Shown here piece by piece: positions 1-12,988 of a DNA stretch of 64,000 nt. Each line of letters starts with the position of its first letter. Position 1 is the stretch's first letter. Origin of the DNA: Agrobacterium tumefaciens. Lineage in GTDB: Bacteria; Pseudomonadota; Alphaproteobacteria; Rhizobiales; Rhizobiaceae. Location: assembly GCA_017744915.1 (NCBI GenBank), contig JAGIAH010000004.1, positions 496,001 through 560,000 of the forward strand, given 5' to 3'. The position numbers were made by a program, and so were the translations under genes. The notes below the pieces were generated by a model. It saw only the letters and a list, made by a program, of their open reading frames with translations. It ran no database searches and was not told where the DNA came from.

Positions 1-195
1 GCTCTCGAAGCGTTTGGCGAGGACATTATCGTTCACCCGATGGCAGTCGTTTCCGATCTGCCAACGAACTACTGGCGTATCGAGGAAGCTCTGGATCAGC
101 GTCCCGTGCGACTGGTTCCTCGTCAGTCCCGCTGGCTTGTGGGGCGACAGTTCCCCGAGGTTCGGCTCGACAAGAAGTACGGATTTAGACCCTAG
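1..195 (+). CDS. C-terminal end of an unidentified protein (cut by window edge)
   Basis: Reading frame 1 is open from the first base and gives 64 residues before a TAG stop. It contains HPMAVVSDLPTNYWRIEEAL and ends KKYGFRP. The start lies outside the window. The sequence is soluble-looking, mixed in charge, and has no motif I can place in a family, so no function is offered. It reads toward the IS66 remnant and repeat that follow. It could be the intact end of a gene or a fragment left by element insertion, and the sequence to the left would decide. Confidence 0.45.
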   Translation, partial: ALEAFGEDIIVHPMAVVSDLPTNYWRIEEALDQRPVRLVPRQSRWLVGRQFPEVRLDKKYGFRP

Positions 196-319
196 TGACT
201 CGGCTTGCCGTAACCGGTGTTCTGCCCCCAGATTGCTGGTTGCCGCCCGATTTGCCATCGGCTTTCCGTGGATGAAGAACGGGAGTTTCTCCATGGAGAC
301 TACATTGGAGATTCTCACA

Positions 320-424
320 ACGAGTAAGTCCGGATACTTCTGGGCGCTGGCACGAGATGATCGTACTTGGGGCGGCGGTGCTCCGCCGGGCGTCGCCTTC
401 ACGTACGCTCCCGGTCGCGGGGGT
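320..424 (+). pseudogene. Remnant of IS66-family transposase (TnpC)
   Basis: About 35 codons in the frame beginning at position 320 read TSKSGYFWALARDDRTWGGG followed by APPGVAFTYAPGRGG. This resembles the conserved tract of IS66-type TnpC transposases (W-x-x-x-R-D-D-R-x-W/F-G-G, then PP-x-V-x-F-x-Y). Nothing upstream or downstream in that frame continues the protein. The match stops exactly where the 93-bp repeat begins. It is a fossil that marks past insertion activity at this border. The assignment rests on motif memory. Confidence 0.55.
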
Positions 425-516
425 ACGGCTTGTCAGCCCACTCTCGCCTTCCCACCACAACAATGCTCAACAGACACCTTATTTCTGTTCGGGAATTAGT
501 GTCAAAGGTCAGTGGC
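424..516. repeat. Left copy of a 93-bp direct repeat flanking the acc-like island
   Basis: Positions 424-516 match 10649-10741 with a constant offset of 10225 and five substitutions, no gaps. The repeat starts tacggcttgtca and ends gtcaaaggtcagtggc. Similarity resumes weakly beyond it (agtggcacgccacactttgt here, agtgacacgccacatctttgt at 10812). A 7-bp hairpin (518-534) follows directly. Both copies point the same way and enclose the whole leftward operon. They may be insertion-element ends or recombination sites. Confidence 0.85.
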
Positions 517-570
517 ACGCCACACTTTGTGGCGCGCTACTGGGTTCGACAGCGCACCACTTGATCGTCC

Positions 571-1560
571 TTAGTGCTTCGGGACAGAGTTCTGCTCGAA
601 ACCGAACCTTAGGCAGTAGCGACGGCTTTCCCCCGATGCCAATCGACCGTCTTCCGATGGGCGAAGATCCGACCTCGGCTCGACACCAAGTGCAAACACC
701 CCTGACTGATAGGCTCGCCATATCGCAAACCTAGGGAGCACCGTCTGATCGTACTCCAGAGAAAGGGTCAGCCCTTGCGAAGCACTGTGGAGCGAAATTG
801 TCGCCCCATGCGGGGTGATGCGGCTGTCGACGAGATCTACTTTCTCCCCGAAGTCGTCGCTCGGTATTGGCGACGTAGAGTTGATTTCATCGACCACCGT
901 CTCCGGGAGACCCGACACCGTCAAGGACTCATCGAGGAAGGGATATCCCACGTTCAGATGGTAGAGGATGGCGTGATCCGATGGCCGAAAGGTCCGGTTC
1001 GTCACCGTGTCCTCGATCGCAAGCGCACCGTCAAAGACCGGAACAATGATCCTGCGATGCAATTCCAGGGTCTCCCCGAACACGCTGGCCTGCCGGACTA
1101 CGGCCTCACAACAGATCGTCGCGGTTTCAATGTCGACACCGTAGCGTAATATTCGCGCCTTCTCAGCGTGAATCCTTCCGTGTTGTGGCAAGCGTCGGGT
1201 GTTCAGGTTGGGATAGTTGAAATGCGCAGTGTCGATTTCATGAGGTCGGCTGTACTGGTCGAGCCCACAGGTCACCATGAAGCCATCAAAATTCCGGAAG
1301 AAGCCCAGGCCCTCCTCTGAGTCTGGATCGTGCGCCGGAAACACCATTTGCGTTGGTGAGTGCCAACCGATGTTGAGGCCCTTGAACGACAGCGCAGAGA
1401 CGTCGAACCCGCGATCCACGGCGATCTCAAACCCAAGACCGACGGCGTTTCTGCCGACAAGCATTCGCTGACCTCGACCAGGACCGTCTTCAAGTATCAT
1501 GAGTCTGACGTCTGCCACGCCGCGAAGATCCGGAGTGCGTCTCAAAAGATCTATGTTCAT
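571..1560 (-). CDS. DUF4432 / aldose 1-epimerase-like protein, last gene of the acc-like operon
   Basis: This 329-residue protein has the galactose-mutarotase-like features of DUF4432 proteins: RGFDVSALSFKGLNIGW near residue 50, a central LPQHGRIH, and LYHLNVGYPFL near residue 200. Members of this fold act on sugars or sugar-like ligands, but DUF4432 substrates are mostly unknown. The start overlaps the Nudix stop by 4 bp (ATGA), so the genes are translationally coupled. As the distal gene of an operon for a sugar phosphodiester, it could mutarotate or epimerise the released sugar, which is inference. No strong terminator follows; only a small hairpin without a T-tract at 518-534. Confidence 0.8.
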   Translation of the reverse strand: MNIDLLRRTPDLRGVADVRLMILEDGPGRGQRMLVGRNAVGLGFEIAVDRGFDVSALSFKGLNIGWHSPTQMVFPAHDPDSEEGLGFFRNFDGFMVTCGLDQYSRPHEIDTAHFNYPNLNTRRLPQHGRIHAEKARILRYGVDIETATICCEAVVRQASVFGETLELHRRIIVPVFDGALAIEDTVTNRTFRPSDHAILYHLNVGYPFLDESLTVSGLPETVVDEINSTSPIPSDDFGEKVDLVDSRITPHGATISLHSASQGLTLSLEYDQTVLPRFAIWRAYQSGVFALGVEPRSDLRPSEDGRLASGESRRYCLRFGFEQNSVPKH

Positions 1561-2126
1561 GTTTGAACCCTTGCGTCAGCAAAAACCATCTCGTGAGCGA
1601 CATCGCGTTTCGCATCCCGACGAACGACGGCCTGGCTTAGGTATAGATCGAGCATCAAGATCAGATCTGCGAGCTCTGATTCGTGGACCGAGGAAGCAGC
1701 ATCGGCCGGTGAGAACCAGCGCATCGTACGTTCTTTTCGTTCGGGGAATTCATCGTCCATTCCGGCCACGTGGAGTAAATGGACATCGACAAGGATTGGC
1801 AGGAGTTCGCCGTCTTGCATCTTCTTGAGGTAAGGGTATCGGCCCCACACCTTCTTTTCTACCGAACCTCGAACGCCGGCCTCCTCCCAAGCTTCAGTAC
1901 TGGCGACCTGATGCGGCATCTTTTTTCGCAAGGGCCATCCCTTTGGGATCACCCATCGGCGACTGTCCCTGCTCGTAATCAGGAGTATCTCGATCTGGCA
2001 ATCATCTCCATCGGCCGTTTGCCGAAAGCAGATTGCCGCGTACTGGGTTCGAGAACGGGAGTACGCGCTTCGCCGCTCCTTTACATCAGAGGAAGGAGAC
2101 TGCTTGGCACCCTGATTGTCCAACAT
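1557..2126 (-). CDS. Nudix hydrolase, diphosphoinositol-polyphosphatase-like group
   Basis: The Nudix box is visible as PKGWPLRKKMPHQVASTEAW continuing EEAGVRG (G-x5 region, then E-x-x-E-E-x-G), with the PKGWP lead-in usual for the DIPP-like branch common in rhizobia. The frame is open to 2276 (GTG), but I prefer ATG at 2126, preceded by AGGA at a usable distance, giving 189 residues. The extra 50 residues of the longer form look unlike any Nudix N-terminus. It sits between the monophosphatase and the DUF4432 gene. The family cleaves nucleoside- or inositol-linked pyrophosphates; its role with an opine-like substrate is unknown. Confidence 0.75.
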   Translation of the reverse strand: MLDNQGAKQSPSSDVKERRSAYSRSRTQYAAICFRQTADGDDCQIEILLITSRDSRRWVIPKGWPLRKKMPHQVASTEAWEEAGVRGSVEKKVWGRYPYLKKMQDGELLPILVDVHLLHVAGMDDEFPERKERTMRWFSPADAASSVHESELADLILMLDLYLSQAVVRRDAKRDVAHEMVFADARVQT

Positions 2127-2312
2127 GAGGGGGCTTCCTGTCATGCCTGGGCATCGATACCCTTTAAGGCTTCGAGTGCGGTCGAAGAGTGAGGCCGATA
2201 TCGTCCAGAGACATCCGGCGTGATGAGTGGTCCGGCTCGATGGCGCCGCGAAATCTGACGCGACGCCGTGCAGCACGAGTGCTTCGACCCAACTATTCGC
2301 AATACGATGTTA

Positions 2313-3131
2313 CTAGACTGCTGCCGACAATGTCTGCAGCAACGGCTTCACCTTACGAAGGAAATCCTCGCTTCCGCACGCGAAGCGGAGTTTTTGGGGA
2401 AGTTCGGTGCGGTCCCAATCAATGGTGTGGGATACGCCCAGGCCAGCGAGGATTGGAAGCGCGGCCATAACGTCCCAGGTCGAGTCACCAACCGAAAGGT
2501 AGCCATCTGTCTCGCCCATAGCCACCTCAAGCAATGAGATGGTGGCAGCTCCACAGAAACGAAAGCTTATACCGAGATCGTCCGAGATGAAGCGTATGAC
2601 CTCGAGGCGGTCCGCCGTTGACACGGATGGGTGGAAGCTGAAGCCCGTAGACGCGCGGGACATGTCTAAAGCCGGAAGAGGCTTGATCGGCTTGCCATTG
2701 AGCTGCGTTGGAACAGTCCGCCCCCCCACAATGGTCAAGTCCCTGACCGGAGCGTGAATGACACCGAATGACGGGCGACGATTCTCGTAGAGGCCGACAG
2801 AGACTGCCCAGTTCTGGCTGCCTCGGACGAAATTGAATGTGCCGTCGATCGGATCGATAACCCAGATCCTGCCCGAAGTGCCAGGTATCTCCCCACCCTC
2901 TTCCCCGAAGACACCATCGTCCGGGAAAGCCTTGCGTAGGCGGGTAATCAGGAAGTCCTCGACCTCCTTGTCGGCCTCGGTCACGAGGTCGAGGTGGCCT
3001 TTGCTTTCAACAGGAAGGTTTGCGAGCGAATGAAAGTACGTGAGCGCCAGTTTCCCGGCCTCCCTGGTGATCTCCTCCACCACGGCCTCGACAGACCGTA
3101 GTGACACGGATGATGATACAATGTCAGCCAC
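2313..3131 (-). CDS. accG: Inositol-monophosphatase-family sugar phosphatase, AccG-like
   Basis: The 272-residue protein carries the metal-binding motifs of the IMPase/FBPase superfamily: GEEGG, DPIDGTFNF and WDVMAALPILAG, in order and with normal spacing. It overlaps the phosphodiesterase gene upstream by 8 bp. In the agrocinopine operon of pTiC58 the matching gene accG encodes a monophosphatase-family enzyme thought to remove phosphate from the sugar phosphate released by AccF. The same step is inferred here from position and family. It could instead act on inositol phosphates or glycerol phosphate. Action is cytoplasmic. Confidence 0.78.
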   Translation of the reverse strand: MADIVSSSVSLRSVEAVVEEITREAGKLALTYFHSLANLPVESKGHLDLVTEADKEVEDFLITRLRKAFPDDGVFGEEGGEIPGTSGRIWVIDPIDGTFNFVRGSQNWAVSVGLYENRRPSFGVIHAPVRDLTIVGGRTVPTQLNGKPIKPLPALDMSRASTGFSFHPSVSTADRLEVIRFISDDLGISFRFCGAATISLLEVAMGETDGYLSVGDSTWDVMAALPILAGLGVSHTIDWDRTELPQKLRFACGSEDFLRKVKPLLQTLSAAV

Positions 3132-3924
3132 GAGCTAGGTCCCTCAATCTGGTTACCTGCACGACGTCGTCGCCGAGGAGTTGGTCCAACTGTCCTTCAC
3201 GAACCCACTGGACGATCTGGGACTCGATATCGACGCCGTATTGCATGAGCTTCTCGTGATATCCGGCGGGAAGATATGTGAACGCAGCGAAACCCTCTTC
3301 GTGGAGCTGGCGCGCCTCACCGCTTGCGAAGTGGTAGACCTCAATGTTCATGGCATCGAGATTGGCCTGCCGCGCGATGGCCGCGGGATCGATCAGGCGC
3401 GAGTGCATCAGACCGACGGTCGGCACCTCGGGAATGGATTCCTTGACCGCCTTGAGCTGGACATAGTCGAATGAGGAAAACTGCATGAGATCGGCGCAGC
3501 CCAGTTCATCGACGAGCGCTCGAAGCTTGGGAAAGAACACGTCGTTCTGGTCGTAGATCTTGAGCTCGACCTGGTAGATGATCCCAAGTTCGCGAGCAAG
3601 CTGGAGAGCATCGCGCAGCCGAGGAACCCGTTCGCCGGCGAACTCCTGGCTGAACCAGCTTCCGGCATCAAGCTTCGAGAGTTCCGAATAGGTCATGTTC
3701 TGCACGACACCGTGACCATCCGTGGTCCGGTCAACGGTCTTGTCGTGCATCAGAATGAGCTCGCCGTCGCTCGTGATGCTGAGGTCGGTCTCGCAGGTGG
3801 CGAGCGGTCCGGCGTATTCGAACGCTTTCCTGAATGCAGCAAGTGTGTTTTCCGGCGCACCGGCGCTATGTCCGCGATGCCCGCCAAGGCGCATCTTCTC
3901 TATGGTCATTCTCAGCGGATTCAT
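3124..3924 (-). CDS. accF: Glycerophosphodiester phosphodiesterase-family enzyme, AccF-like
   Basis: The 266-residue protein shows the GDPD signature: HRGHSAGAPENT near the N-terminus, ETDL, MHDKTVDRTTDG and VELK, which together supply the catalytic histidines and metal-binding acids. There is no signal peptide, so it acts in the cytoplasm on an imported phosphodiester. AAGGAA lies 6 bp before the ATG. It is 15 bp from the second permease gene. By order it corresponds to accF, the agrocinopine phosphodiesterase of Ti plasmids. A plain glycerophosphodiesterase role (glycerophosphocholine or glycerophosphoinositol) is the main alternative. Confidence 0.8.
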   Translation of the reverse strand: MNPLRMTIEKMRLGGHRGHSAGAPENTLAAFRKAFEYAGPLATCETDLSITSDGELILMHDKTVDRTTDGHGVVQNMTYSELSKLDAGSWFSQEFAGERVPRLRDALQLARELGIIYQVELKIYDQNDVFFPKLRALVDELGCADLMQFSSFDYVQLKAVKESIPEVPTVGLMHSRLIDPAAIARQANLDAMNIEVYHFASGEARQLHEEGFAAFTYLPAGYHEKLMQYGVDIESQIVQWVREGQLDQLLGDDVVQVTRLRDLARG

Positions 3925-3939
3925 TTTGTTTCCTTTCGT

Positions 3940-4803
3940 TTAACGGAGTCGAGCGTCGAGACGATCGCGCAGGTAGTCGCCTAGAAGGCTGATGGAGAGG
4001 GTCGTAAGCACGATGACCGCGCCTGGGAACGCCGACAGCCACCAGGCGATCGCCAGGTAATTGCGGCCATCCGCGACCATGAGACCAAGACTGGTGGCAG
4101 GCGGCTGAATGCCGAGCCCAAGGAAGCTCAACCCGCTTTCGAGCAGAATGATTTCCGGGAAATTCACGGTGAACTGAACGATCAGTGGGCCAGCAATGTT
4201 AGGCAGCATGTGCCGCAGGTAAATGCGTCGTGCAGGCACGCCGACGATCCTAGCTGCTTCCGCATAGCCCTCTTCCTTCGCGCTGATGACGAGACCGCGG
4301 GTCAATCGGGCATATCGCTCCCAGTTGGCAAAACCAACGAGAAAGACAAAGAGCAGCGGGCTCGAACCAAGCAATGCCAGCACGCCAAGCGCAATGATGA
4401 TGAAGGGTATCGACGCCATCGCATCGGAGAAGCCCATAATCACGTTGTCGACCCAGCCGCCGAAATGGGCGGCAAGCAGGCCAAGGATCGTTCCGATCAG
4501 AGCGCAGATCAGCGATCCGATGATTGCGATCATCAGGGTCGTCTGCGTAGCGACCAAAAGGTTGCTGATAACATCACGACCCAGGTAGTCGGTTCCCAGC
4601 AGGTGATTGGCCGAGACAAAGGGTCGGGCGAACCGGGCAAGTGGGTCCTGGCTAAGGTAGTCGAATGGCGCTAGCCATCGGGCGGTGACGCCGACGAAGA
4701 CCACTATCGTAATCCACAGGCAGCATAGTGCGATGCTTGCGGGCATGCGGCGAAACGGAGACCAAATCGAGCCTGAGGAGGAGGAAGATGTCGCAATCGC
4801 CAT
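3940..4803 (-). CDS. ABC importer permease, DppC/OppC type (AccE position)
   Basis: This inner-membrane permease has 287 residues from ATG 4803, chosen because AGGAAG lies 7 bp upstream and the previous gene's TGA ends one base before it; a longer frame to 4851 would overlap that gene. It has an N-terminal anchor, the DppC-type N-terminal segment ending LLGTDYLGRDV, and the permease motif EEGYAEAARIVGVPARRIYL that contacts the ATPases. It pairs with the adjacent DppB-type permease. By order it equals AccE of pTiC58, though which letter applies was not checked. Confidence 0.85.
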   Translation of the reverse strand: MAIATSSSSSGSIWSPFRRMPASIALCCLWITIVVFVGVTARWLAPFDYLSQDPLARFARPFVSANHLLGTDYLGRDVISNLLVATQTTLMIAIIGSLICALIGTILGLLAAHFGGWVDNVIMGFSDAMASIPFIIIALGVLALLGSSPLLFVFLVGFANWERYARLTRGLVISAKEEGYAEAARIVGVPARRIYLRHMLPNIAGPLIVQFTVNFPEIILLESGLSFLGLGIQPPATSLGLMVADGRNYLAIAWWLSAFPGAVIVLTTLSISLLGDYLRDRLDARLR

Positions 4804-4804
4804 G

Positions 4805-5722
4805 TCAGTGCTTCCTGATCTTCGGATTGAGGACGGCGTAGAGGACATCAACCGTCAGGTTGATTGCGACCATGAACGCAGTGAACAGCACGATCATCGC
4901 CTGCACGACCGGGAGGTCACCCGTGCTTGTGGCGCTGACGAAGCCGCTGCCAAGCCCCGGCCAAGCAAAGACGGGTTCGATGAGTGCCGAACCGCCAAGA
5001 AGGCCGCTGGCGGTAAAGCCCAGGGTCGTGACCATTGGAATCGCAGCGTTTGGCAATGCGTGCCGAAGGATGACTTCCCAGCTCGGGATGCCGTCTGCGC
5101 GTGCCGCGGCAATGTAAGGCTGGCCAAGTACATCGATGAGCGTCGATCGCATGAACCGTGCGATTGCCGCGGCATTGAACAGGGCGAACGTCGCGATCGG
5201 CAAGACCGCGTGCTTCCAGGTCGTACTCCCCGAGCTGGGAAGAATGCGGATCCACACGGCGAATACGAAGATGAACACGAGCCCCAGAAGAAAGTTGGGA
5301 ATGCTGTAGCCGAGAACCGCTGCGGCCATCACGCCCTTGTCCACGGCCGACTCGCGACGTACGGCCGCAAGGATTCCCGCGGGCACTCCAATCAGGATGC
5401 TCAGAAGAAATGCCGAAACCGTGACGAGGAGCGTCTTGGGGAGTCGCTCGCTGACGACGGTGAAGACGTCTCGTCCGTCGGCAAATGAGATCCCGAAATC
5501 CCCGCGCAGTGCGTTGGCGACATAGATTAGATACTGCTCCGGTATCGACCGATCGAGACCCCACTTGGTATTAAAGGCGGCAAGTGCTTCCGGACCCGCA
5601 TTATCCGAAAGCATCTGCTGGGCCGGATCGCCACTCAACCTCAGAACCACGAATACGAGCGTAACTGTAAAGACAAGGACGACGACTGCTCGAAGGAGTC
5701 TGGCAAGGATGAACGATGTCAT
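4805..5722 (-). CDS. ABC importer permease, DppB/OppB type (AccD position)
   Basis: The 305-residue permease starts at ATG 5722, with AAGGAG 8 bp upstream and a 4-bp ATGA overlap with the ATPase stop; the frame extends to 5797, but that N-terminus is not membrane-like. It begins MTSFILARLLRAVVVLVFTV, a typical DppB first helix, and carries the coupling-loop motif YIAAARADGIPSWEVILRHA. Six membrane segments are apparent. It forms the translocation pore with the DppC-type partner encoded next. Confidence 0.85.
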   Translation of the reverse strand: MTSFILARLLRAVVVLVFTVTLVFVVLRLSGDPAQQMLSDNAGPEALAAFNTKWGLDRSIPEQYLIYVANALRGDFGISFADGRDVFTVVSERLPKTLLVTVSAFLLSILIGVPAGILAAVRRESAVDKGVMAAAVLGYSIPNFLLGLVFIFVFAVWIRILPSSGSTTWKHAVLPIATFALFNAAAIARFMRSTLIDVLGQPYIAAARADGIPSWEVILRHALPNAAIPMVTTLGFTASGLLGGSALIEPVFAWPGLGSGFVSATSTGDLPVVQAMIVLFTAFMVAINLTVDVLYAVLNPKIRKH

Positions 5723-6738
5723 AGCGCCAGCTCCTTTTGCTGAGGCACGACCGACCCGGAAGCGATCGATCGAGGAAACTCTTCGGCTCGGTGACAAGCG
5801 GCCTGCTGGCTACCCACTGCCCTCAGCTCGGGGGTCTCTGTGGAGCATCTCGCAACCGCGAAGGGACAGCGTGATCGGAAGGCGCAGCCCTGTGCTGTCT
5901 TAGTGGCATCAAGTTCTCCCTTGATGGGCGGCTCGATGTTGCGCACGCTCGGATCCATAGTTGGAACCGACGCAAGCAAGGCGCGGGTATAGGGATGGCG
6001 CGGCCATTCGTAGACGGATTTGATGTCACCCGACTCAACTACCCGCCCCAGATACATGACGGCGATCCGGTCGACGAGGTGACGCACAATCCGAAGATCG
6101 TGGGTGATGAAGACGTAGGCGAGATCGAGCTCCTGCCATAACGACCGCAGAAGTGCCACGACCTGTGCCTGAACGGAAACATCCAGAGCCGACACAGCCT
6201 CATCGAAGATCACAAGCTTCGGGTCCAGGATCAGGGCCCGAGCGATGACCACGCGTTGTCTCTGTCCACCCGACATCTGATGAGGATAGCGGTCCATCAT
6301 CGCCTTCGACAGACCCACTCGTTCGAGCATGACGGACGCGCGTTCGTAGGCACCGGATCGGTCAGCTATACGATGGACCAGAAGGCCTTCGGAAATCTGC
6401 TGGCCAATCGTCATCTGCGGGTTCAGCGCTGATAACGGGTTTTGTTGAACCAGTGATGTGCGGATGCGGAACTTCGTCCAGTCTTCTGGACTGCGATCCC
6501 GATGATTGACGCCCTCGAACCAGACGTCGCCGCTCGTTGGGGGCGTCAGACCTAGAAGCAGCCGACCAAGTGTGGACTTGCCGCTGCCCGATTCACCGAC
6601 AATGCCGATACGCTCGCGTTGCGACAACTCGAATGTGATGGAGTTGGCAGCAAGCTGGCTGGTCGGTTTAGCGAAGAACCCCGACTTGTGACGGAAAGCT
6701 TTCGTGAGATCGCGGGTCTGGAGCAAACGCGTGTTCAT
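5719..6738 (-). CDS. ABC importer ATPase, DppF/OppF type (AccC position)
   Basis: The 339-residue ATPase has Walker A GESGSGKST, signature MSGGQRQRVVIARAL and Walker B LVIFDEAVSALD, followed by the oligopeptide-type C-terminal domain (RHPYTRALLASVP; GCAFRSRCPFA). ATG 6738 overlaps the preceding ATPase stop by 4 bp; the longer frame to 6852 is rejected because it runs into that gene. The protein energises import of the ligand delivered by the binding protein at 7737-9302. It lies in one transcription unit with both permeases. Confidence 0.87.
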   Translation of the reverse strand: MNTRLLQTRDLTKAFRHKSGFFAKPTSQLAANSITFELSQRERIGIVGESGSGKSTLGRLLLGLTPPTSGDVWFEGVNHRDRSPEDWTKFRIRTSLVQQNPLSALNPQMTIGQQISEGLLVHRIADRSGAYERASVMLERVGLSKAMMDRYPHQMSGGQRQRVVIARALILDPKLVIFDEAVSALDVSVQAQVVALLRSLWQELDLAYVFITHDLRIVRHLVDRIAVMYLGRVVESGDIKSVYEWPRHPYTRALLASVPTMDPSVRNIEPPIKGELDATKTAQGCAFRSRCPFAVARCSTETPELRAVGSQQAACHRAEEFPRSIASGSVVPQQKELAL

Positions 6739-7679
6739 GCTATCACCGGATGGTAGCAAGAGGCCTCGTGAACGAGACCGACATTGGCAGAGGCCGGAAA
6801 GCGAGCGGAGCATTCTCCGCTCGCGCGCGAACAGCGCGGGTGGAAATGGCATCCTTCCGGGAGACTATCGAGGAGTGGCACCGATCCCGGAATTGGAACC
6901 GGGGGTTCGAGATCATCAGGATCGATGCTTGGCATGCAGTCGATGAGCGCTCGCGCATATGGATGGGCAGGCCGCTGTAGAAGTTCCGCCACAGGAGCCG
7001 TTTCGACAATCTTGCCGCAGTACATCACCGCTGCCCGATCCGCGAGGCGGGCAATGACGCCTAGATCATGAGACACGATCATCAACGCCATCCCCGTCTC
7101 GGCTCTAAGTTCTTCGAGCAGATGGAGAATCTGAGCCTGCATCGTCACGTCGAGTGCAGTTGTCGGCTCGTCAGCGATAAGAAGCTGAGGCTTTGCCGCG
7201 AGCGCGTGCGCGATCATTACACGCTGGTTCATGCCACCCGAGAACTGATGCGGATACGCGCGCAGCCGGCTCTTGGCTCGATCGATACCAACCCGTTCGA
7301 GCAGGCGCATTGCCTCGAACCGGGCGTCATTCCCTATTAGTCCTTGGTGGCGCCAGAGCGCGGATTCCAGATAAAAGCCGATTGTGTGAACCGGATTGAG
7401 GCTGCTTGTCGGATCTTGGAAGATCATCGCGATCGTCGGATCCTTGGATTGGTGGCTATTCGGGTCACGTTCGAATGTCACGGCTCCGCTCGTCCGGACA
7501 ATCCCACGTGGAAGCATGTTGGCAACGGCGTAGCACGTCATGCTCTTGCCACAGCCGGATTCGCCGACGAGACCCAATGTCTGTCCGGCATCCAGGGAGA
7601 AGCTGATGCCGTCGATGATCTTTATTTTACGAGCCGGGACCTCGACGACGAGGTTTTGCACGGTCAAGAGCTTGGGCAT
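6735..7679 (-). CDS. ABC importer ATPase, DppD/OppD type (AccB position)
   Basis: The 314-residue ATPase starts at ATG 7679, with GGGAGA 7 bp upstream; the 27 bases of upstream frame are ignored. It shows Walker A GESGCGKS, signature FSGGMNQRVMIAHAL, Walker B LLIADEPTTALD, and the C-terminal HPYARALIDCMPS and CHFHPRCSRA segments of peptide/opine importers. Two different ATPases encoded side by side are the norm for the Dpp/Opp class. It is separated from the binding-protein gene by 57 bp. Confidence 0.87.
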   Translation of the reverse strand: MPKLLTVQNLVVEVPARKIKIIDGISFSLDAGQTLGLVGESGCGKSMTCYAVANMLPRGIVRTSGAVTFERDPNSHQSKDPTIAMIFQDPTSSLNPVHTIGFYLESALWRHQGLIGNDARFEAMRLLERVGIDRAKSRLRAYPHQFSGGMNQRVMIAHALAAKPQLLIADEPTTALDVTMQAQILHLLEELRAETGMALMIVSHDLGVIARLADRAAVMYCGKIVETAPVAELLQRPAHPYARALIDCMPSIDPDDLEPPVPIPGSVPLLDSLPEGCHFHPRCSRASGECSARFPASANVGLVHEASCYHPVIA

Positions 7680-7736
7680 GGACTGTCTCCCAGAAGCGGT
7701 GCGCACGGATGCGCACCGCGATAACGCTGGATATCG

Positions 7737-9302
7737 TTACGAGAAGCTGAGGTTGTTCCGGAATTCCATCATTTCGAAACTGATGGGCTTCCAGTTGACG
7801 TCCTTGCGAGCGGCATAGACATCGAACGGCTGGTAGAGGATGACCGCGGGCGCTTCTTCTTCGAAGATGTCGCGCATCCGGTTGTAGGCGTCGAAGCGTT
7901 CCTTGCCGTCAGGCAACTGGGACACCTTCACGCAGAGCTCGTTGAACTCAGCAGGAGCCTGCCATCCCCAGCGCTTCTGTACCTGACCCTTCGGTCCGAA
8001 CTCGCAGACCATGGTGGCCCATGCATCGGTCATCCACTGGCCGTTCGACCAGTTGCGGATGTAGCTGTCCGGATCCTTTGGGGCAGCGCCAGGAGCGTAG
8101 ATCTTGGGCACGACGTTGACCCCGATCTGCTTCCACATCTCGATCATCATCATCAAGGCCGGAACCGCGTTGGCGTAATAGTTGCCCATCGTGTGGTAGG
8201 TGATAGGCGAACCGTCGTACCCGCTTTCCTTCACCAGCCGCTTGGCTTCCTCGATGTTGTAGTCCAGCGGCCGGCGATCCGGATCGAAGGTTTTGCCGTA
8301 GTTCGGGAAGTTGAAACCGTGCGGGATGCTTGCCTTGTTCTTCCAAAGTGACTCGACCATGATCGGACGATTGACGGCGAGCGCCAGCGCGCGGCGCAGC
8401 TCCTTCGACTTGAACACGGGCTGGTTCATATTGAAGGTGAACATGTGGAAGTTTTCCACCACGTTCCCACGGGTTTCCAGGTCGGAATAGCCGTTGATCA
8501 GGTCCATGTCGTCAGGGGTGAGCGTCGTGACGATATCGTACTCACCGCTGATCAGCCCGGCGACGCGGGTGGCGGGCTCTGCCACAAGCTGGTAGGTGAT
8601 CTTCGAAGCCGTCGGTTTGGCACCCCAATAGGCGTCATTCGCTTCAACCACTGCTCGGTCGCCAGCGATCATCTCGATGAACTTGTAGGGACCGGTTCCG
8701 ATCGGCTTGTTGCCAAAGGCCACTGGCCCAAGGCTCTTATAGTAGTCCTTGGGAACGATCCGACCCATCCAGGAAGCAACATAGCTTTCGGTGAGGTGCG
8801 TCGGAGTCTTCGTACGCAAGACCACCGTGTACTTGTCCTCGACTTGGGACTCGTCAAAGTCGAGCGAATAGGCATTGCCAAGCGGGATCGCCTTGATCGC
8901 TTCCGGCCCCCACAGACGCTCCGATGAGAAAGTATATGCGACGTCGTCGGCCGTCATTTCCACGCCATTGTGGAACATGACCTTCTGGCGCAGCTTGAAC
9001 CGGACTGACTTCTCGTCGATGCGTTCCCAGCTTTCGGCGAGCGCAGGGATCAGGTCGATGCCGTTGCCAGGCGCGCCGTTTCCGAAGAAATCGCGAACGA
9101 GAAGCGTGTCGAATATCTGGTTGACAATCCGCGGGCCAACGTTGCTGATGGCGTTGACCGGCTCCAGCGTGGCGGGTAGGCCATTCACGCCAATGCGCAG
9201 GGCTTTTCGCTCCTGGGCGAACGCGCATTTGAGGCTCGTGGTTGACGCAAGCGCAGCGACGCCTGCTCCAATGATGAAGTTTCTACGGGTTGACGAAAGC
9301 AT
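7737..9302 (-). CDS. accA: Tat-exported periplasmic solute-binding protein, AccA-like (agrocinopine type)
   Basis: This 521-residue cluster-C (family 5) binding protein starts at ATG 9302, with GGAGA 8 bp upstream; a 7-codon longer form exists. The N-terminus TRRNFIIGAGVAAL is a twin-arginine signal with cleavage likely after AFAQ. The mature protein has the Dpp fold: IPALAESWERI, MTADDVAYTF, GTGPYKF, RRALALAVNR. Stretches such as GLPATLEPVNAISNVGPRIV and KRWGWQAPAEFNELC are very like what I remember of AccA from pTiC58, which binds agrocinopine A and agrocin 84 by a pyranose-2-phosphate motif. The specificity call rests on that memory plus operon order; a dipeptide binder is the alternative. 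Confidence 0.82.
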   Translation of the reverse strand: MLSSTRRNFIIGAGVAALASTTSLKCAFAQERKALRIGVNGLPATLEPVNAISNVGPRIVNQIFDTLLVRDFFGNGAPGNGIDLIPALAESWERIDEKSVRFKLRQKVMFHNGVEMTADDVAYTFSSERLWGPEAIKAIPLGNAYSLDFDESQVEDKYTVVLRTKTPTHLTESYVASWMGRIVPKDYYKSLGPVAFGNKPIGTGPYKFIEMIAGDRAVVEANDAYWGAKPTASKITYQLVAEPATRVAGLISGEYDIVTTLTPDDMDLINGYSDLETRGNVVENFHMFTFNMNQPVFKSKELRRALALAVNRPIMVESLWKNKASIPHGFNFPNYGKTFDPDRRPLDYNIEEAKRLVKESGYDGSPITYHTMGNYYANAVPALMMMIEMWKQIGVNVVPKIYAPGAAPKDPDSYIRNWSNGQWMTDAWATMVCEFGPKGQVQKRWGWQAPAEFNELCVKVSQLPDGKERFDAYNRMRDIFEEEAPAVILYQPFDVYAARKDVNWKPISFEMMEFRNNLSFS

Positions 9303-9356
9303 CTGTTGTCTCCTGCTTGGCAAGATGCTGTTGACGGGTATGGGAATTGGGAGAAG

Positions 9357-10130
9357 TCAGTTCGCGATGACGAACTTTTTCCGCAGCTTCTCGGGGGCCG
9401 CGTCGATAATCGACTTCGAGCCGGAATCGGTCACAATGACCCCGACGTCCTCAATCTTTGTGATGACGGACATGCTTGATTTCGTGAACTTCGAATGATC
9501 CGCGACGACGATGGTGCGCCGGGAAACCTCGATCATAGCTCGTGCAATGCTGGCGTTCACTGGCGTAGAGGTGCAGATTAAGCCCCGGTCAACATCGACC
9601 GACGCCGCATTGAGGATCAGCTTGTCGACATTGAACTGACGAACGAACTGCTCCGCTAAAGGGCCGCCAAACGACCGGTTTGTCTCGAAGTACTCGCCTC
9701 CGACGGTGTAGATGCTCCGGCCTTCGATGCGACTGAGCTCCGCGACGATGTCGAGACCATTGGAGATGAACGTCAGATTGTTCCTCCCGGCCAATGCACG
9801 GGCAACCTCTAGAGCGGTCGTACCGGAATCGAGCAGCACCGTATCACCATCGACGATCATTCCCGATACCGTCTGCGCAATCGCTGCCTTCTCGGCCTGC
9901 TTCCAAACGAGGCGCGCAGCGTTGGTCGCATCGAGAGCGACCTGATTAACGCTGACTGCCCCGCCGTGAGTGCGACGAAGCAGCCCCATCTCCTCTAACT
10001 CACCCAGATCGCGACGGACGGTCGCAACGGAGACATCTAGTCGCTCCGTCAGTGTACGCAGATCCAGGAAGCTCTTCTCTCGAAGCAACTCGACAATCTT
10101 CGCCTGACGATCTTCAGCTTGCGTGAGCAC
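9357..10130 (-). CDS. accR: DeoR-family transcriptional repressor, AccR-like
   Basis: The protein has the DeoR N-terminal winged helix (LTQAEDRQAKIVELLREK, then VATVRRDLGELEEMGLLRRT and HGGA) and the DeoRC sugar-phosphate-sensing domain (DSGTTALEVARAL; ISNGLDIVAEL). I chose GTG 10130, with GGGGGG about 8 bp upstream. The ATG at 10166 lies inside the operator palindrome and has no close ribosome site. That gives 257 residues. AccR of pTiC58 is a DeoR-type repressor of acc and of conjugation genes. Here it heads the operon 54 bp from accA and probably represses itself. The inducer is inferred to be a phosphorylated sugar. Confidence 0.8.
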   Translation of the reverse strand: MLTQAEDRQAKIVELLREKSFLDLRTLTERLDVSVATVRRDLGELEEMGLLRRTHGGAVSVNQVALDATNAARLVWKQAEKAAIAQTVSGMIVDGDTVLLDSGTTALEVARALAGRNNLTFISNGLDIVAELSRIEGRSIYTVGGEYFETNRSFGGPLAEQFVRQFNVDKLILNAASVDVDRGLICTSTPVNASIARAMIEVSRRTIVVADHSKFTKSSMSVITKIEDVGVIVTDSGSKSIIDAAPEKLRKKFVIAN

Positions 10131-10154
10131 GACCAGATTCCCCCCCAATTGAAA

Positions 10155-10182
10155 GATATCGCTCATTTGTTTGAGCGATATC
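10155..10182. promoter_or_regulatory. Putative AccR-like operator (perfect 11-bp inverted repeat)
   Basis: GATATCGCTCA at 10155-10165 is the exact reverse complement of TGAGCGATATC at 10172-10182, with a 6-bp spacer. It lies just after the expected transcription start and before the repressor's ribosome site, a standard place for autorepression. The outer sequence GAAAGATA also recurs on both sides, offset by 4 bp. Confidence 0.7.
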
Positions 10183-10200
10183 TATCTTTCCTCCATGACA

Positions 10201-10228
10201 ACGATATGACAAAAATCCACGATTGCAA
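10201..10228 (-). promoter_or_regulatory. Candidate promoter of the acc-like operon
   Basis: On the minus strand TTGCAA (10228-10223) and TATCGT (10206-10201) are spaced 16 bp, giving -35 and -10 boxes that each match the sigma-70 consensus in four of six bases. Transcription would begin near 10194, just upstream of the palindrome. This is a moderate match only. Confidence 0.45.
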
Positions 10229-10289
10229 GGCAATTATCTGTTTGATGATACGCTTCGCAGTTCGCGCGCTCCTTCAAAAGCAGTTTTTT

Positions 10290-10305
10290 TGAGCGATATC
10301 GATCA
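10290..10305. promoter_or_regulatory. Second putative operator half-site cluster
   Basis: TGAGCGATATCGATCA repeats the 11-bp arm of the main operator and is itself nearly palindromic. Its centre is about 129 bp from the centre of the main palindrome, near 12 helical turns, which would allow repression by looping. This is inference from sequence alone. Confidence 0.5.
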
Positions 10306-10648
10306 TTTACGACCGCCCAGGAATTTCTCTTGCGGTTAAGGATACAAGTCGTCATCCGTCGTCGGCACCTATCCCCTGGCGCCGTTGCTCGGCAATCATC
10401 TTGGGCTTGAGCCGTATCGGGTGGGCAAGGTTAAATGAAGCTCGCAGCATGGAAGACGGAGAGCTTTGGTGCCTCAGGCTCTAAGGCCGTGGTACAACAT
10501 TGGACAAGCCGCGATAGGCAAGCACTTGGCTGACTAGGGGATGCAGTGCCCTGACCGCTTTTTTGGGCGTATTCTCACCATCAACGTCGTAACGGCATTT
10601 TTAGGAATGGCCAATCGAGCTTGGTCAACGTGCGAGGAAAACACCGCT
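10306..10648. other. Gene-free island edge
   Basis: No reading frame here has a credible ribosome site or recognisable product. Short frames are broken by stops. The stretch lies between the operator region and the right repeat copy and probably holds decayed mobile DNA. Confidence 0.5.
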
Positions 10649-10741
10649 TACGGCTTGTCAACCCGCTCTCGCCTTCCCACCGCAACAAGGCTCAACAGAC
10701 ACCTTATTTCTGTTCGAGAATTAGTGTCAAAGGTCAGTGGC
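10649..10741. repeat. Right copy of the 93-bp direct repeat
   Basis: Matches 424-516 with five substitutions and no gaps. Unlike the left copy, it is followed by about 75 extra bases before similarity resumes at 10812. The flank carries the word TGTCA several times (10726-10840), a layout seen at the ends of some insertion sequences. No transposase gene is attached. Confidence 0.85.
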
Positions 10742-10964
10742 GCAATGTCATTCTGGATGGCGCGCGCAAGAAAAAAAGCCGAATGTTTTCAGTGCGCTCA
10801 ATGTCACACCCAGTGACACGCCACATCTTTGTCAGATTGACACGAAGAAATAATTAAGGACTGGCCAACAAAAAATTGGCCAGTTCGAAACCTAAAATGA
10901 GTAAACCAGTATTTTAACGTCTCTCGATCACTAATAGGTGTTCGTAAAATTGAACTGGTTTAAA

Positions 10965-11312
10965 ATGACAAAAACTGCACAGGCCCGTGAGGCATATATT
11001 TTATACAAGCAAAAAAACATCTTAAGACTTATTTTTCATACAATAAAACTATTTTTATACACTGCCGCTCCGGCCACCGTAATAGCGTATTTAACAGACC
11101 ACGTGAGCGGTTTATTCTATATATTAACCCCGTTCTTCATGTATTTTTTCTTTCCGGTCTGGTTCGGATTTTACGTGGCCAGTGCTTTACTGACACAGAT
11201 GTCCGGAGAAAGCCTTGGGAAAGGGAGCTTACTTGGCGAGAATCCGTCTTTTTCCGACGTCACGTTTCATCTCACAGGCTTTAGAGTTAAGGATGAGAGC
11301 GATGAAAATTGA
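10965..11312 (+). CDS. Small AT-rich membrane protein of unknown function
   Basis: The frame gives 115 residues from ATG 10965, or 124 from GTG 10938; neither start has a good ribosome site. A basic N-terminus is followed by three hydrophobic stretches (IFHTIKLFLYTAAPATVIAY; LFYILTPFFMYFFFP; FGFYVASALL) and a polar tail ending KDESDEN. Base composition is far more AT-rich than the neighbours, a sign of transfer. I do not recognise the family. It sits between the repeat and a toxin-antitoxin remnant. Confidence 0.5.
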   Translation: MTKTAQAREAYILYKQKNILRLIFHTIKLFLYTAAPATVIAYLTDHVSGLFYILTPFFMYFFFPVWFGFYVASALLTQMSGESLGKGSLLGENPSFSDVTFHLTGFRVKDESDEN

Positions 11313-11373
11313 GTTCAGAGCCAATAATCGGGTAAAATCGACCGAACCAGATAGGCCCACCTTCACGCCATGA
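11302..11373 (+). pseudogene. Possible internally deleted BrnT-type toxin gene
   Basis: ATG 11302, preceded by AAGGATGAG, opens a 23-codon frame starting MKIEF and ending PTFTP. Its stop overlaps the antitoxin ATG by 4 bp. BrnT-type toxins commonly start MKIE/F and their genes overlap or abut the antitoxin, and the tail FRANNRVKS resembles a degraded end of such a toxin. I infer an in-frame internal deletion. It could also be a chance leader frame. Confidence 0.3.
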
Positions 11374-11630
11374 CCGACGAAGAAGCGGAAGCCAATGCGC
11401 TGGCCGATCCCAACAATCCGCCGCTTTCCGCCGAACAGTTCGCTGCTGCCAAGAAAACGCTCCGCATCAAAATCATCCGCCGGGCGCTGAAGCTGATGCA
11501 GGAAGAGTTTTCTGCGCGCTATCATATTCCACTCGGAACCCTGCGCAATTGGGAACAGGGCCGAAGCGAGCCGGATCAACCGGCCCGCGCCTATCTGAAA
11601 GTCATCGCCGTCGATCCGGAAGAACGGTAG
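11370..11630 (+). CDS. HTH antitoxin-like protein, apparently orphan
   Basis: The 86-residue protein has a C-terminal XRE-like helix-turn-helix: KLMQEEFSARYHIPLGTLRN, then WEQGRSEPDQPARAYLKVI. This is typical of antitoxins paired with BrnT/HigB-like toxins in Rhizobiales. No intact toxin gene is next to it; the preceding 23-codon frame may be its remnant. It may still bind its own promoter. It marks the left end of the ordinary chromosome. Confidence 0.75.
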   Translation: MTDEEAEANALADPNNPPLSAEQFAAAKKTLRIKIIRRALKLMQEEFSARYHIPLGTLRNWEQGRSEPDQPARAYLKVIAVDPEER

Positions 11631-11662
11631 CCGCGCTCCGAAAGGGCGCGGCCTGACCTGCC

Positions 11663-12988
11663 TCACCCCATAAAATCCACCAGCAACTTCACATTCAGCG
11701 CCGCAATCACCACCGCGATCAGCCATGCAAAGGCCGAGAGCCAAAGCGGGGAGCGCAGCTCGCCCATCTTCGTCCGGTCGGCGGTGAACATCACGAGCGG
11801 GAAGACGGCGAAGGAGAGTTGCAGGCTCAGCACCACCTGCGTCAGGATCAGCAGTTCTGCCGTGCCGCTGTCGCCATAAAAGATGGTCACGCCGGCGGCG
11901 GGAACGATGGCGATGGCGCGGGTGATGAGGCGGCGCAACCAGGGGGCGAGCCGCATCTTGAGGAAACCCTCCATCACGATCTGGCCGGCAAGCGTTGCCG
12001 TGACGGTGGAATTGATGCCACAGCACAGAAGCGCCACGCCGAACAGCGTCGGCGCAATGGCAAGACCGAGCAGAGGTGCCAGCAGATTATGCGCTTCGCC
12101 GAGTTCGGCGACATTGGTCTGCCCCGACTTGTTGAAGGTCGCTGCCGCAAGAATGAGGATCGAGGCGTTGATGAGGAGCGCAAACATCAGCGCGATGGTG
12201 GAATCGAGGGTCGCGAATTTCAGCGCCTCGCGTTTTTCGGCAAGGCTATGGCCGATTTCACGGGTCTGCACGATACCCGAGTGCAGGTAGAGATTATGCG
12301 GCATGACGGTGGCGCCGAGAATGCCAAGCGCCAGATAGAGCATGTCGGGATTGGTGACGATTTCGGTCGTCGGCGCAAAACCGAGGATCACCTGCCCCCA
12401 GTCGGGATCGGCCAGCGCCACCTGAATGGCGAAACATACGGCAATAACGCCAAGCAGCGTGATGACCAGCGCCTCCACCCAGCGGAAACCGAGCTTCTGC
12501 AGATAAAGGATCAGGAACACATCAAGCGCGGTGATGAGAACGCCGAGTTCCAGCGGAATGCCGAAGATGAGGTTGAGGCCGATGGCCGTGCCGATCACCT
12601 CGGCGATATCGGTGGCGATGATGGCGATTTCCGCGAGCAGCCACAGCACCATCGCCACGGGTTTCGGATAGGCATCACGACAGGCCTGGGCGAGATCGCG
12701 GCCGGATGCGATCGCAAGACGGGCGCAGAGTGACTGCAGCACAATCGCCATGATGTTCGAAACCAGCGCGACGGTGAGCAGCGTGTAACCGAACTTGGAA
12801 CCGCCGGCGAGCGACGTCGCCCAGTTGCCGGGATCCATATAACCGACCGCAACGAGATAGCCGGGGCCAAAAAAGGCCATTGCCCGGCGAAACGTGCTGG
12901 CATCCGGTTTGATGCGGATCGAACTGTGAACGTCAGACAGCGAGAGGTCATCGCCGTTCCGCCGCCATCCAAAGACAGGCTTGTCCAT
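11663..12988 (-). CDS. mntH: Mn2+/H+ symporter MntH (Nramp family)
   Basis: The 441-residue protein has eleven hydrophobic segments and the Nramp hallmarks [14 protein letters not shown] (DPGN in helix 1) and [10 protein letters not shown] (MPH in helix 6). It imports manganese with protons at the inner membrane. ATG 12988 is preferred over an upstream TTG at 13003. Upstream lies an inverted repeat resembling a Mur-responsive site, fitting manganese repression by the Fur-family protein Mur in rhizobia. Confidence 0.95.

What the first reader, a model, noticed from the sequence alone, without database searches (positions are those of the whole stretch)
571..2276. acc-like operon extended by a Nudix hydrolase and a DUF4432 epimerase-like gene
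Two extra enzymes follow the phosphatase gene, the last coupled to the Nudix gene by a 4-bp overlap. They are not part of the Ti-plasmid acc operon as I recall it. DUF4432 could process the released sugar. The Nudix enzyme could act on a nucleotide-linked cargo, which raises the speculative option of detoxifying agrocin-like nucleotide antibiotics taken up through the same importer.
Basis: inference. Interest (0 to 1): 0.6.

Follow-up and report, generated by a model that had tools for sequence, protein, structure and literature searches.

The report
Opine operon with phosphate-linked Nudix gene
The two extra genes at the end of this agrocinopine-use operon are a frequent, little-studied tail of such operons in Agrobacterium and its relatives: one looks like a sugar mutarotase, the other belongs to a Nudix family often found beside phosphate transporters, so the operon probably couples opine use to phosphate balance rather than to antibiotic defence.

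Summary
The genes are real: a DUF4432 gene (571-1560) and a Nudix gene (1557 to about 2126), minus strand, joined by ATGA, behind accR-accABCDEFG. Seventeen AccA pocket positions match C58 AccA. The claim that the pair is foreign to Ti-plasmid acc operons is wrong: pTiC58 and pTiBo542 carry both, and 132 of 155 matching plasmid records hold accG-Nudix-DUF4432 in one place. Of 25 acc loci in GTDB genomes, 12 have both, 1 Nudix only, 3 DUF4432 only, 9 neither.

DUF4432 resembles galactose mutarotases, with invariant His-His-Glu; it probably acts on the released pyranose. The Nudix is nearest, distantly, to diphosphoinositol/polyphosphate hydrolases. Of 79 relatives found in 71 genomes, 42 lie within 1.5 kb of a Pit-family phosphate transporter gene (0.08 expected). 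The acc Nudix group joins copies opposite PhoU_div-Pit. A PHO box precedes accR. I therefore read the Nudix as a phosphate-homeostasis enzyme, substrate open. Agrocin 84 detoxification is not supported: pTiC58 has an intact copy, and agrocin 84 inhibits such strains.

Here the operon sits among chromosomal genes, inside an insert with inverted TGTGGCG ends; two congeners show the empty site.

The parts
571..1560 (-). DUF4432 gene, galactose-mutarotase-like; candidate catalytic H127, H201, E294
   Evidence: PF14486 1.6e-52; only PDB sequence match 3ty1; fold search of a low-confidence model finds 3ty1 and GalM structures first; invariant residues
1557..2126 (-). Nudix gene (ORF opens at 2276; likely start ATG 2126 or 2144); DIPP/DDP1-like
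   Evidence: PF00293; PDB matches DDP1/DIPP; start from homologues and sequence
2313..3131 (-). accG, inositol-monophosphatase family
   Evidence: PF00459 1.1e-47; 62-87% identical to accG of other acc loci
3124..3924 (-). accF, GDPD-family agrocinopine phosphodiesterase
   Evidence: PF03009; 95% to pTi C16/80, 85% to pTi-SAKURA accF
3940..4851 (-). ABC permease (accE by position)
   Evidence: PF00528
4805..5797 (-). ABC permease (accD by position)
   Evidence: PF00528
5719..6852 (-). ABC ATPase (accC by position)
   Evidence: PF00005
6735..7706 (-). ABC ATPase (accB by position)
   Evidence: PF00005
7737..9323 (-). accA, agrocinopine-binding protein; 17 of 17 pocket positions checked identical to C58 AccA
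   Evidence: best PDB match AccA 8ch1, then 4ra1; residue map
9357..10166 (-). accR, DeoR-family repressor (true start probably about 12 codons downstream)
   Evidence: PF00455 and PF08220; homology begins at residue 1-13, most often 13
10166..10189 (.). 24-bp repeat, copy 1; candidate AccR operator (inference)
   Evidence: direct repeat D3, 88%
10284..10307 (.). 24-bp repeat, copy 2
10195..10212 (-). PHO box TTGTCATATCGTTGTCAT, 2 mismatches of 14 scored positions
528..550 (+). left inverted end TGTGGCGCGCTACTGGGTTCGAC of the insert that holds acc
10803..10825 (-). right inverted end TGTGGCGTGTCACTGGGTGTGAC
424..516 (+). 93-bp direct repeat, copy 1
10649..10741 (+). 93-bp direct repeat, copy 2, 95% identical

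Best explanation
This is an agrocinopine-type (pyranose-2-phosphate diester) import and catabolism operon with its frequent two-gene tail. Inferred pathway: AccA-E import the opine; AccF cuts it to sucrose (or another moiety) plus arabinose- or glucose-2-phosphate; AccG removes the phosphate; the DUF4432 protein, a mutarotase-like enzyme, interconverts anomers of the released pyranose or its 2-phosphate so that it flows on. The opine is also a phosphorus source: the operon carries a PHO box and releases orthophosphate. The Nudix enzyme belongs to a family that often accompanies phosphate transporters; it most likely hydrolyses a pyrophosphate-bond compound tied to phosphate status (polyphosphate, a dinucleoside polyphosphate or a related molecule) and so helps the cell handle phosphate when this organophosphate is used. 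Shown here: gene order, recurrence, families, binding-pocket identity, PHO box, the Nudix-transporter association and the Nudix group. Inferred: every enzyme activity, and the exact Nudix substrate.
For: AccA pocket: 17 of 17 positions checked identical to C58 AccA (residues named in section 8 of PMC4526662). The tail recurs: 132 of 155 plasmid records, 12 of 25 GTDB acc loci; pTiC58 and pTiBo542 are annotated with it. Close DUF4432 relatives (at least 45% identity) lie beside accG or a GDPD gene in 7 of 7 fetched loci (window included); 23 of 23 more distant ones show no acc-type gene within about 1.5 kb. pAtK84b has a different AccA (33%) but the same accF-accG-Nudix-DUF4432, plus a TIM-barrel, an aldose epimerase and a sucrose phosphorylase-like gene. 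Nudix: DDP1/DIPP are the best PDB sequence matches; 42 of 79 places lie within 1.5 kb of PF01384 (expected 0.08) and 42 of 67 PF01384 places have such a neighbour; 5 lie within 2.5 kb of PhoU_div (expected 0.03). acc group 99/98, joined at 96/94 with three PhoU_div-Pit-linked copies and one unlinked. In the 25 GTDB loci an Na/Pi gene or fragment of it lies in the stretch of 11 of 13 loci with the Nudix and 1 of 12 without (near-copies included). PHO box: 15 of 28 regions with at most 2 mismatches against 6 of 560 control pieces. acc is activated by phosphate limitation (passage of PMC4086400 citing Kim 2008). dN/dS medians 0.17 (Nudix, 8 pairs) and 0.15 (DUF4432, 4 pairs).
Against: No enzyme was assayed. 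9 of 25 acc loci lack both genes, and pTi-SAKURA and S. meliloti M270 have broken Nudix genes, so the Nudix is dispensable. The Nudix box departs from the consensus (K for the first E, T for the R), and the relatives depart too, so even its chemistry is not certain. The window has no phosphate transporter that I recognised beside acc; the only Na/Pi match in the genome is on another contig. 33 of the 79 Nudix places are near no phosphate-transporter or acc gene that I found. Two of the five PhoU_div-linked Nudix copies and the Na/Pi-linked one fall elsewhere in the tree, whose root is arbitrary. The DUF4432 model is poor in the active-site region and its Foldseek list also holds YidC and glycosidase domains. 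Mutarotation is spontaneous, so the need for an enzyme is unproven.
Confidence: 0.6

Rival explanations
1. The Nudix enzyme (with or without DUF4432) detoxifies agrocin-84-like nucleotide antibiotics that enter through the same importer.
For: The AccA pocket predicts uptake of agrocin 84; a Nudix protein in the same operon could meet the drug inside the cell.
Against: pTiC58 has an intact Nudix in its acc operon though strains with nopaline-type Ti plasmids are inhibited by agrocin 84 (passage of PMC4231840). The links described are phosphoramidates (passages of PMC4526662, PMC5059758). Known immunity is a resistant LeuRS (abstract and passages of PMC5059758). Many relatives of the Nudix sit with phosphate transporters.
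Confidence: 0.04
2. The Nudix enzyme acts on the pathway itself, for example on a nucleotide sugar or a sugar pyrophosphate formed from the released arabinose or glucose.
For: It seems to travel with accG and DUF4432 rather than with accA and accF: correlation of dN distances 0.82 with DUF4432 and 0.69 with accG, 0.38 with accA and 0.32 with accF (pAtK84b left out, no correction for shared ancestry).
Against: Nearest solved relatives are DIPP/DDP1, not ADP-ribose or nucleotide-sugar hydrolases; the family's commonest context is phosphate transport.
Confidence: 0.2
3. The Nudix gene is a hitch-hiker left by recombination with an Na/Pi cotransporter-Nudix unit, with little function in agrocinopine use.
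For: A Nudix lies behind an Na/Pi gene in pAoF64/95, in L085 and as a fragment in L031; it is absent from 12 of 25 GTDB acc loci and broken in two plasmids.
Against: One well-supported group, an open frame through the match in 22 of 24 loci and dN/dS well below 1.
Confidence: 0.15

Closest known systems
acc operon of pTiC58 / pTi-SAKURA / pTiBo542
   Same: Same gene order accR-accA-G-Nudix-DUF4432 (Nudix broken in SAKURA), PHO box in the three; AccA pocket of C58.
   Different: Here among chromosomal genes, inside a small insert. The genome's only Na/Pi match is on another contig and no close sucrose phosphorylase was found (best 29%); traR was not searched.
acc/arc region of opine-catabolic plasmid pAtK84b
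   Same: accF-accG-Nudix-DUF4432 with 62-82% identity.
   Different: AccA only 33% identical; TIM-barrel gene between Nudix and DUF4432; Na/Pi, aldose epimerase, sucrose phosphorylase-like and traR genes follow.
DDP1 / DIPP Nudix hydrolases
   Same: Best PDB sequence matches.
   Different: Distant (34 bits single sequence, 44 bits profile); Nudix box lacks the first E and the R of the consensus.
Galactose mutarotase (GalM) and 3ty1
   Same: Fold of the low-confidence model and His-His-Glu residues.
   Different: DUF4432 is a separate Pfam family; substrate unknown.
[quoted passage not shown]
   Same: A Nudix gene among phosphate transport genes (passages of PMC7866108).
   Different: Not compared by sequence; no opine operon.

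Membership tests
agrocinopine catabolism (acc) operon | AccA pocket for pyranose-2-phosphate | tested here: met
   17 of 17 positions checked identical to C58 AccA
agrocinopine catabolism (acc) operon | accR-accABCDE-accF-accG order | tested here: met
agrocinopine catabolism (acc) operon | growth on agrocinopine; AccF/AccG activity | not testable with these tools
Pho regulon | PHO box upstream | tested here: met
   (consensus CTGTCATN4CTGTCAT recalled)
Pho regulon | PhoB-dependent expression | not testable with these tools
   activation of acc by phosphate limitation is reported (passage of PMC4086400)
Nudix hydrolase | strict box GX5EX7REUXEEXGU (recalled) | tested here: not met
   K at the first E and T at the R; EAWEEAG kept; relatives also depart, a few keep the R
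Nudix hydrolase | Pfam NUDIX above cut-off | tested here: met
   21.9 against 21.1 bits
DIPP/DDP1 subfamily | closest solved relatives are DIPPs | tested here: met
DIPP/DDP1 subfamily | hydrolysis of inositol pyrophosphate or polyphosphate | not testable with these tools
galactose-mutarotase-like (DUF4432) | PF14486 match and mutarotase-like fold | tested here: met
   model mean pLDDT only 60.8
galactose-mutarotase-like (DUF4432) | catalytic His, His, Glu | tested here: inconclusive
   H127, H201, E294 invariant in 9 and in 10 sequences; equivalence to GalM H96, H170, E304 (numbers in PDB titles; roles recalled) rests on order, equal 74-residue His spacing and alignment to 3ty1, not on a reliable model

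The most novel reading that the evidence does not exclude
Rhizobiaceae use a DIPP-type Nudix family as the off-switch of a pyrophosphate-based phosphate signal (polyphosphate-like or a still unknown bacterial compound) that governs Pit and Na/Pi transport, and opine plasmids captured one copy so that catabolism of a phosphorus-rich opine resets this signal: a bacterial counterpart of eukaryotic inositol-pyrophosphate phosphate signalling.
Probability: 0.1. Interest if true: 0.75.

Novelty: new member of a known kind. Interest (0 to 1): 0.42.

Why it matters
It gives two overlooked genes of a classic system (agrocinopine use, quorum-sensing control, agrocin 84 uptake) a testable role, shows that in most acc plasmids examined the operon runs two genes past accG, and points to a phosphate-transporter-linked Nudix family in Rhizobiaceae. 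I did not find the function of the acc tail or this link described in the papers held; only some hits were opened, mostly as passages, and the primary acc papers are not held.

Tried and rejected
Rejected: (1) agrocin detoxification, see rivals. (2) A lost Nudix-box Arg as a special trait of the acc Nudix: the two chromosomal copies of the same genome also lack it, and a few acc copies keep it. (3) A tRNA or other known RNA as integration site for the 93-bp repeat: none found (whole window, 1-12000). (4) The N-terminal part of the long Nudix ORF as a remnant of an Na/Pi gene: no Na/Pi hit in the window. (5) Nudix fold search: model mean pLDDT 54.0, not searched. (6) Relatives of the insert's ends in the plasmid collection: none for 10620-10830; for 380-600 no whole-length match, and in the 15 listed of 20 records only the first 44-46 bases, annotated IS66 transposase in 6 of the 15. 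DUF4432 in print: two papers hold the word, neither opened.

Limits: plasmid counts include many near-identical nopaline plasmids, and the 25 GTDB loci include near-copies (L016/L017; L024/L025/L030/L038; L032/L033). In one search, 30 regions were listed and 2 (L005, L006) dropped for short upstream DNA; near-copies L017, L025, L030, L033, L038 and also L040 and L007 were not given; some of the 28 share one sequence, and control pieces were drawn at random from the same loci. The tree holds 57 rows, of which L090 and L122 are the same place twice and L011/L032 near-copies. L085 was labelled acc before its context was read; it lies behind an Na/Pi gene, no accG seen. dN correlations ignore shared ancestry. 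Expectations assume uniform placement in 4.7-Mb genomes.

Full report
OBSERVATION. The window holds, on the minus strand, accR (10166-9357), accA (9323-7737), two ABC ATPases, two permeases, accF (3924-3124), accG (3131-2313), a Nudix gene and a DUF4432 gene (571-1560). The last two share ATGA. The Nudix ORF opens at 2276, but homologues and an AGGA before ATG 2126 favour a start at 2126 or 2144. The operon is an acc operon by sequence: AccA is nearest to solved agrocinopine-binding proteins, and the 17 pocket positions that I checked equal those of C58 AccA (residues from section 8 of PMC4526662. That text calls position 504 Glu; the C58 record translated here has Trp, and the window has Trp too).

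NOT AN EXOTIC EXTENSION. In pTiC58 accG is followed by a gene annotated NUDIX hydrolase and one annotated aldose 1-epimerase family protein; the Nudix is in frame. pTiBo542, an A. vitis pTi, pB19.1.4a and a clover Rhizobium plasmid have the same tail. pAtK84b has it with a TIM-barrel gene inserted, downstream of a quite different AccA (33%). In pTi-SAKURA and an S. meliloti plasmid the DUF4432 gene is whole and the Nudix broken. Others differ: the closest relative by accF, pTi C16/80, shows neither gene; pRiA4 has a DUF4432 fragment before a Nudix; pAoF64/95 has DUF4432 behind accG and its Nudix elsewhere. Of 155 plasmid records matching AccG+Nudix+DUF4432 (E up to 1e-40), 132 hold at least 80% of the query in one place; 139 records hold AccA at E up to 1e-150. 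Of 25 loci found with AccA in GTDB genomes, 12 have both genes behind accG, one (L037) the Nudix only, three DUF4432 only (L035 elsewhere in the locus, L039, L040 in pieces), nine neither. So the tail is usual on the plasmids but dispensable. One paper notes the pAtK84b ORFs Arad_14120 and 14121 (the TIM-barrel and Nudix genes) as genes of the ACC region, without function (PMC6546132, section 22).

DUF4432. The only PDB sequence match is a putative aldose 1-epimerase, 3ty1. A predicted model (mean pLDDT 60.8, residues 67-133 under 50) finds 3ty1 first (TM-score 0.59 on the query, rmsd 6.3), then galactose mutarotases, but also YidC and glycosidase domains. H127, H201 and E294 are invariant. 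In 394 genomes of the family, 137 have a DUF4432 match. Of the 30 loci fetched, the seven with at least 45% identity (the window among them) lie next to accG or a GDPD gene; the other 23, at most 41%, show no acc-type gene within about 1.5 kb. Two of the distant ones sit between a xylose-isomerase-like TIM barrel and a dehydrogenase. This favours a role on the released sugar.

NUDIX. The best solved relatives are DDP1 and DIPPs. The genome has two further copies. One (52%) lies opposite PhoU_div and a PF01384 Pit transporter, with a PHO box of one mismatch between them. The other (49%) lies beside another PF01384 gene. In 71 genomes the profile finds 79 places in 59 genomes. Forty-two are within 1.5 kb of PF01384, 0.08 expected; 42 of 67 PF01384 places have such a neighbour. 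Two more are next to an Na/Pi gene and two are in acc operons; thirty-three are near none of these that I found. On a tree of 57 rows the 19 acc-labelled rows form one group (99/98). It joins (96/94) with four rows, three of them opposite PhoU_div-Pit and one, L087, not linked in its stretch; the other two PhoU_div-linked rows and the Na/Pi-linked L116 lie elsewhere, and the root is arbitrary. Na/Pi genes or fragments lie in the stretch of 11 of 13 GTDB acc loci with the Nudix and of 1 of 12 without, and a Nudix of this group lies directly behind one in pAoF64/95 and L085.

REGULATION. An 18-bp PHO-box-like site starts 76-89 nt before the accR homology start in 26 of 28 regions; 15 of 28 have at most 2 mismatches and 20 of 28 at most 3, against 6 and 15 of 560 control pieces. 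Activation of acc by phosphate limitation is reported (passage of PMC4086400). The primary paper (Kim 2008) is not held.

AGROCIN. The importer here should accept agrocin 84 (inference), but detoxification by the Nudix is unlikely: pTiC58 has an intact copy in the same operon, the links described are phosphoramidates, and known immunity is a resistant LeuRS.

WHERE IT SITS. The rest of the window reads as chromosomal genes (my reading of the translations, not a family search). acc is bracketed by a 93-bp repeat found twice in the genome and by inverted ends TGTGGCGYGYYACTGGGTNYGAC at window 528-550 (+) and 10803-10825 (-); a third copy lies at C21:495321, and none, with up to 2 mismatches, in 38 congeners. 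Two congeners have the left flank next to the right flank, so about 11.5 kb were gained; TCTTTG stands on both outer sides. I recognised no transposase gene within the insert, but only the acc ORFs and one left-hand ORF were given to Pfam. The mobility mechanism is inferred.

CONFIDENCE. Anatomy and recurrence: high. DUF4432 as mutarotase-like: about 0.7. Nudix as phosphate-homeostasis enzyme: about 0.6; substrate open.

Noticed in passing
window 528-10825 and C21:495321-506825: The acc operon lies in an insert with 23-bp inverted TGTGGCG ends and TCTTTG on both outer sides; two congeners show the uninterrupted site. It looks like cargo of a transposon without its own transposase.
   Followed up: partly
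C21:495320-496195 (L077 15321-16196), left of the window and window 1-195: A first, 1.2-kb segment with the same left end holds an ORF with a weak patatin start motif (E 0.047, below cut-off) that looks like fused gene remnants.
   Followed up: partly
L079, L113, L117 (PhoU_div-Pit loci): Nudix genes stand opposite PhoU_div-Pit with PHO boxes of 0-1 mismatch between them; 42 of 67 Pit-family genes in 71 genomes have a Nudix of this family within 1.5 kb.
   Followed up: yes
window 10166-10189 and 10284-10307: 24-bp repeat upstream of accR, next to the PHO box; candidate AccR operators.
   Followed up: no
   Followed up: partly
acc loci with Nudix and DUF4432: accA and accF distances correlate at 0.96 but only weakly with Nudix (0.38, 0.32), as if accG-Nudix-DUF4432 is exchanged as a block.
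   Followed up: partly
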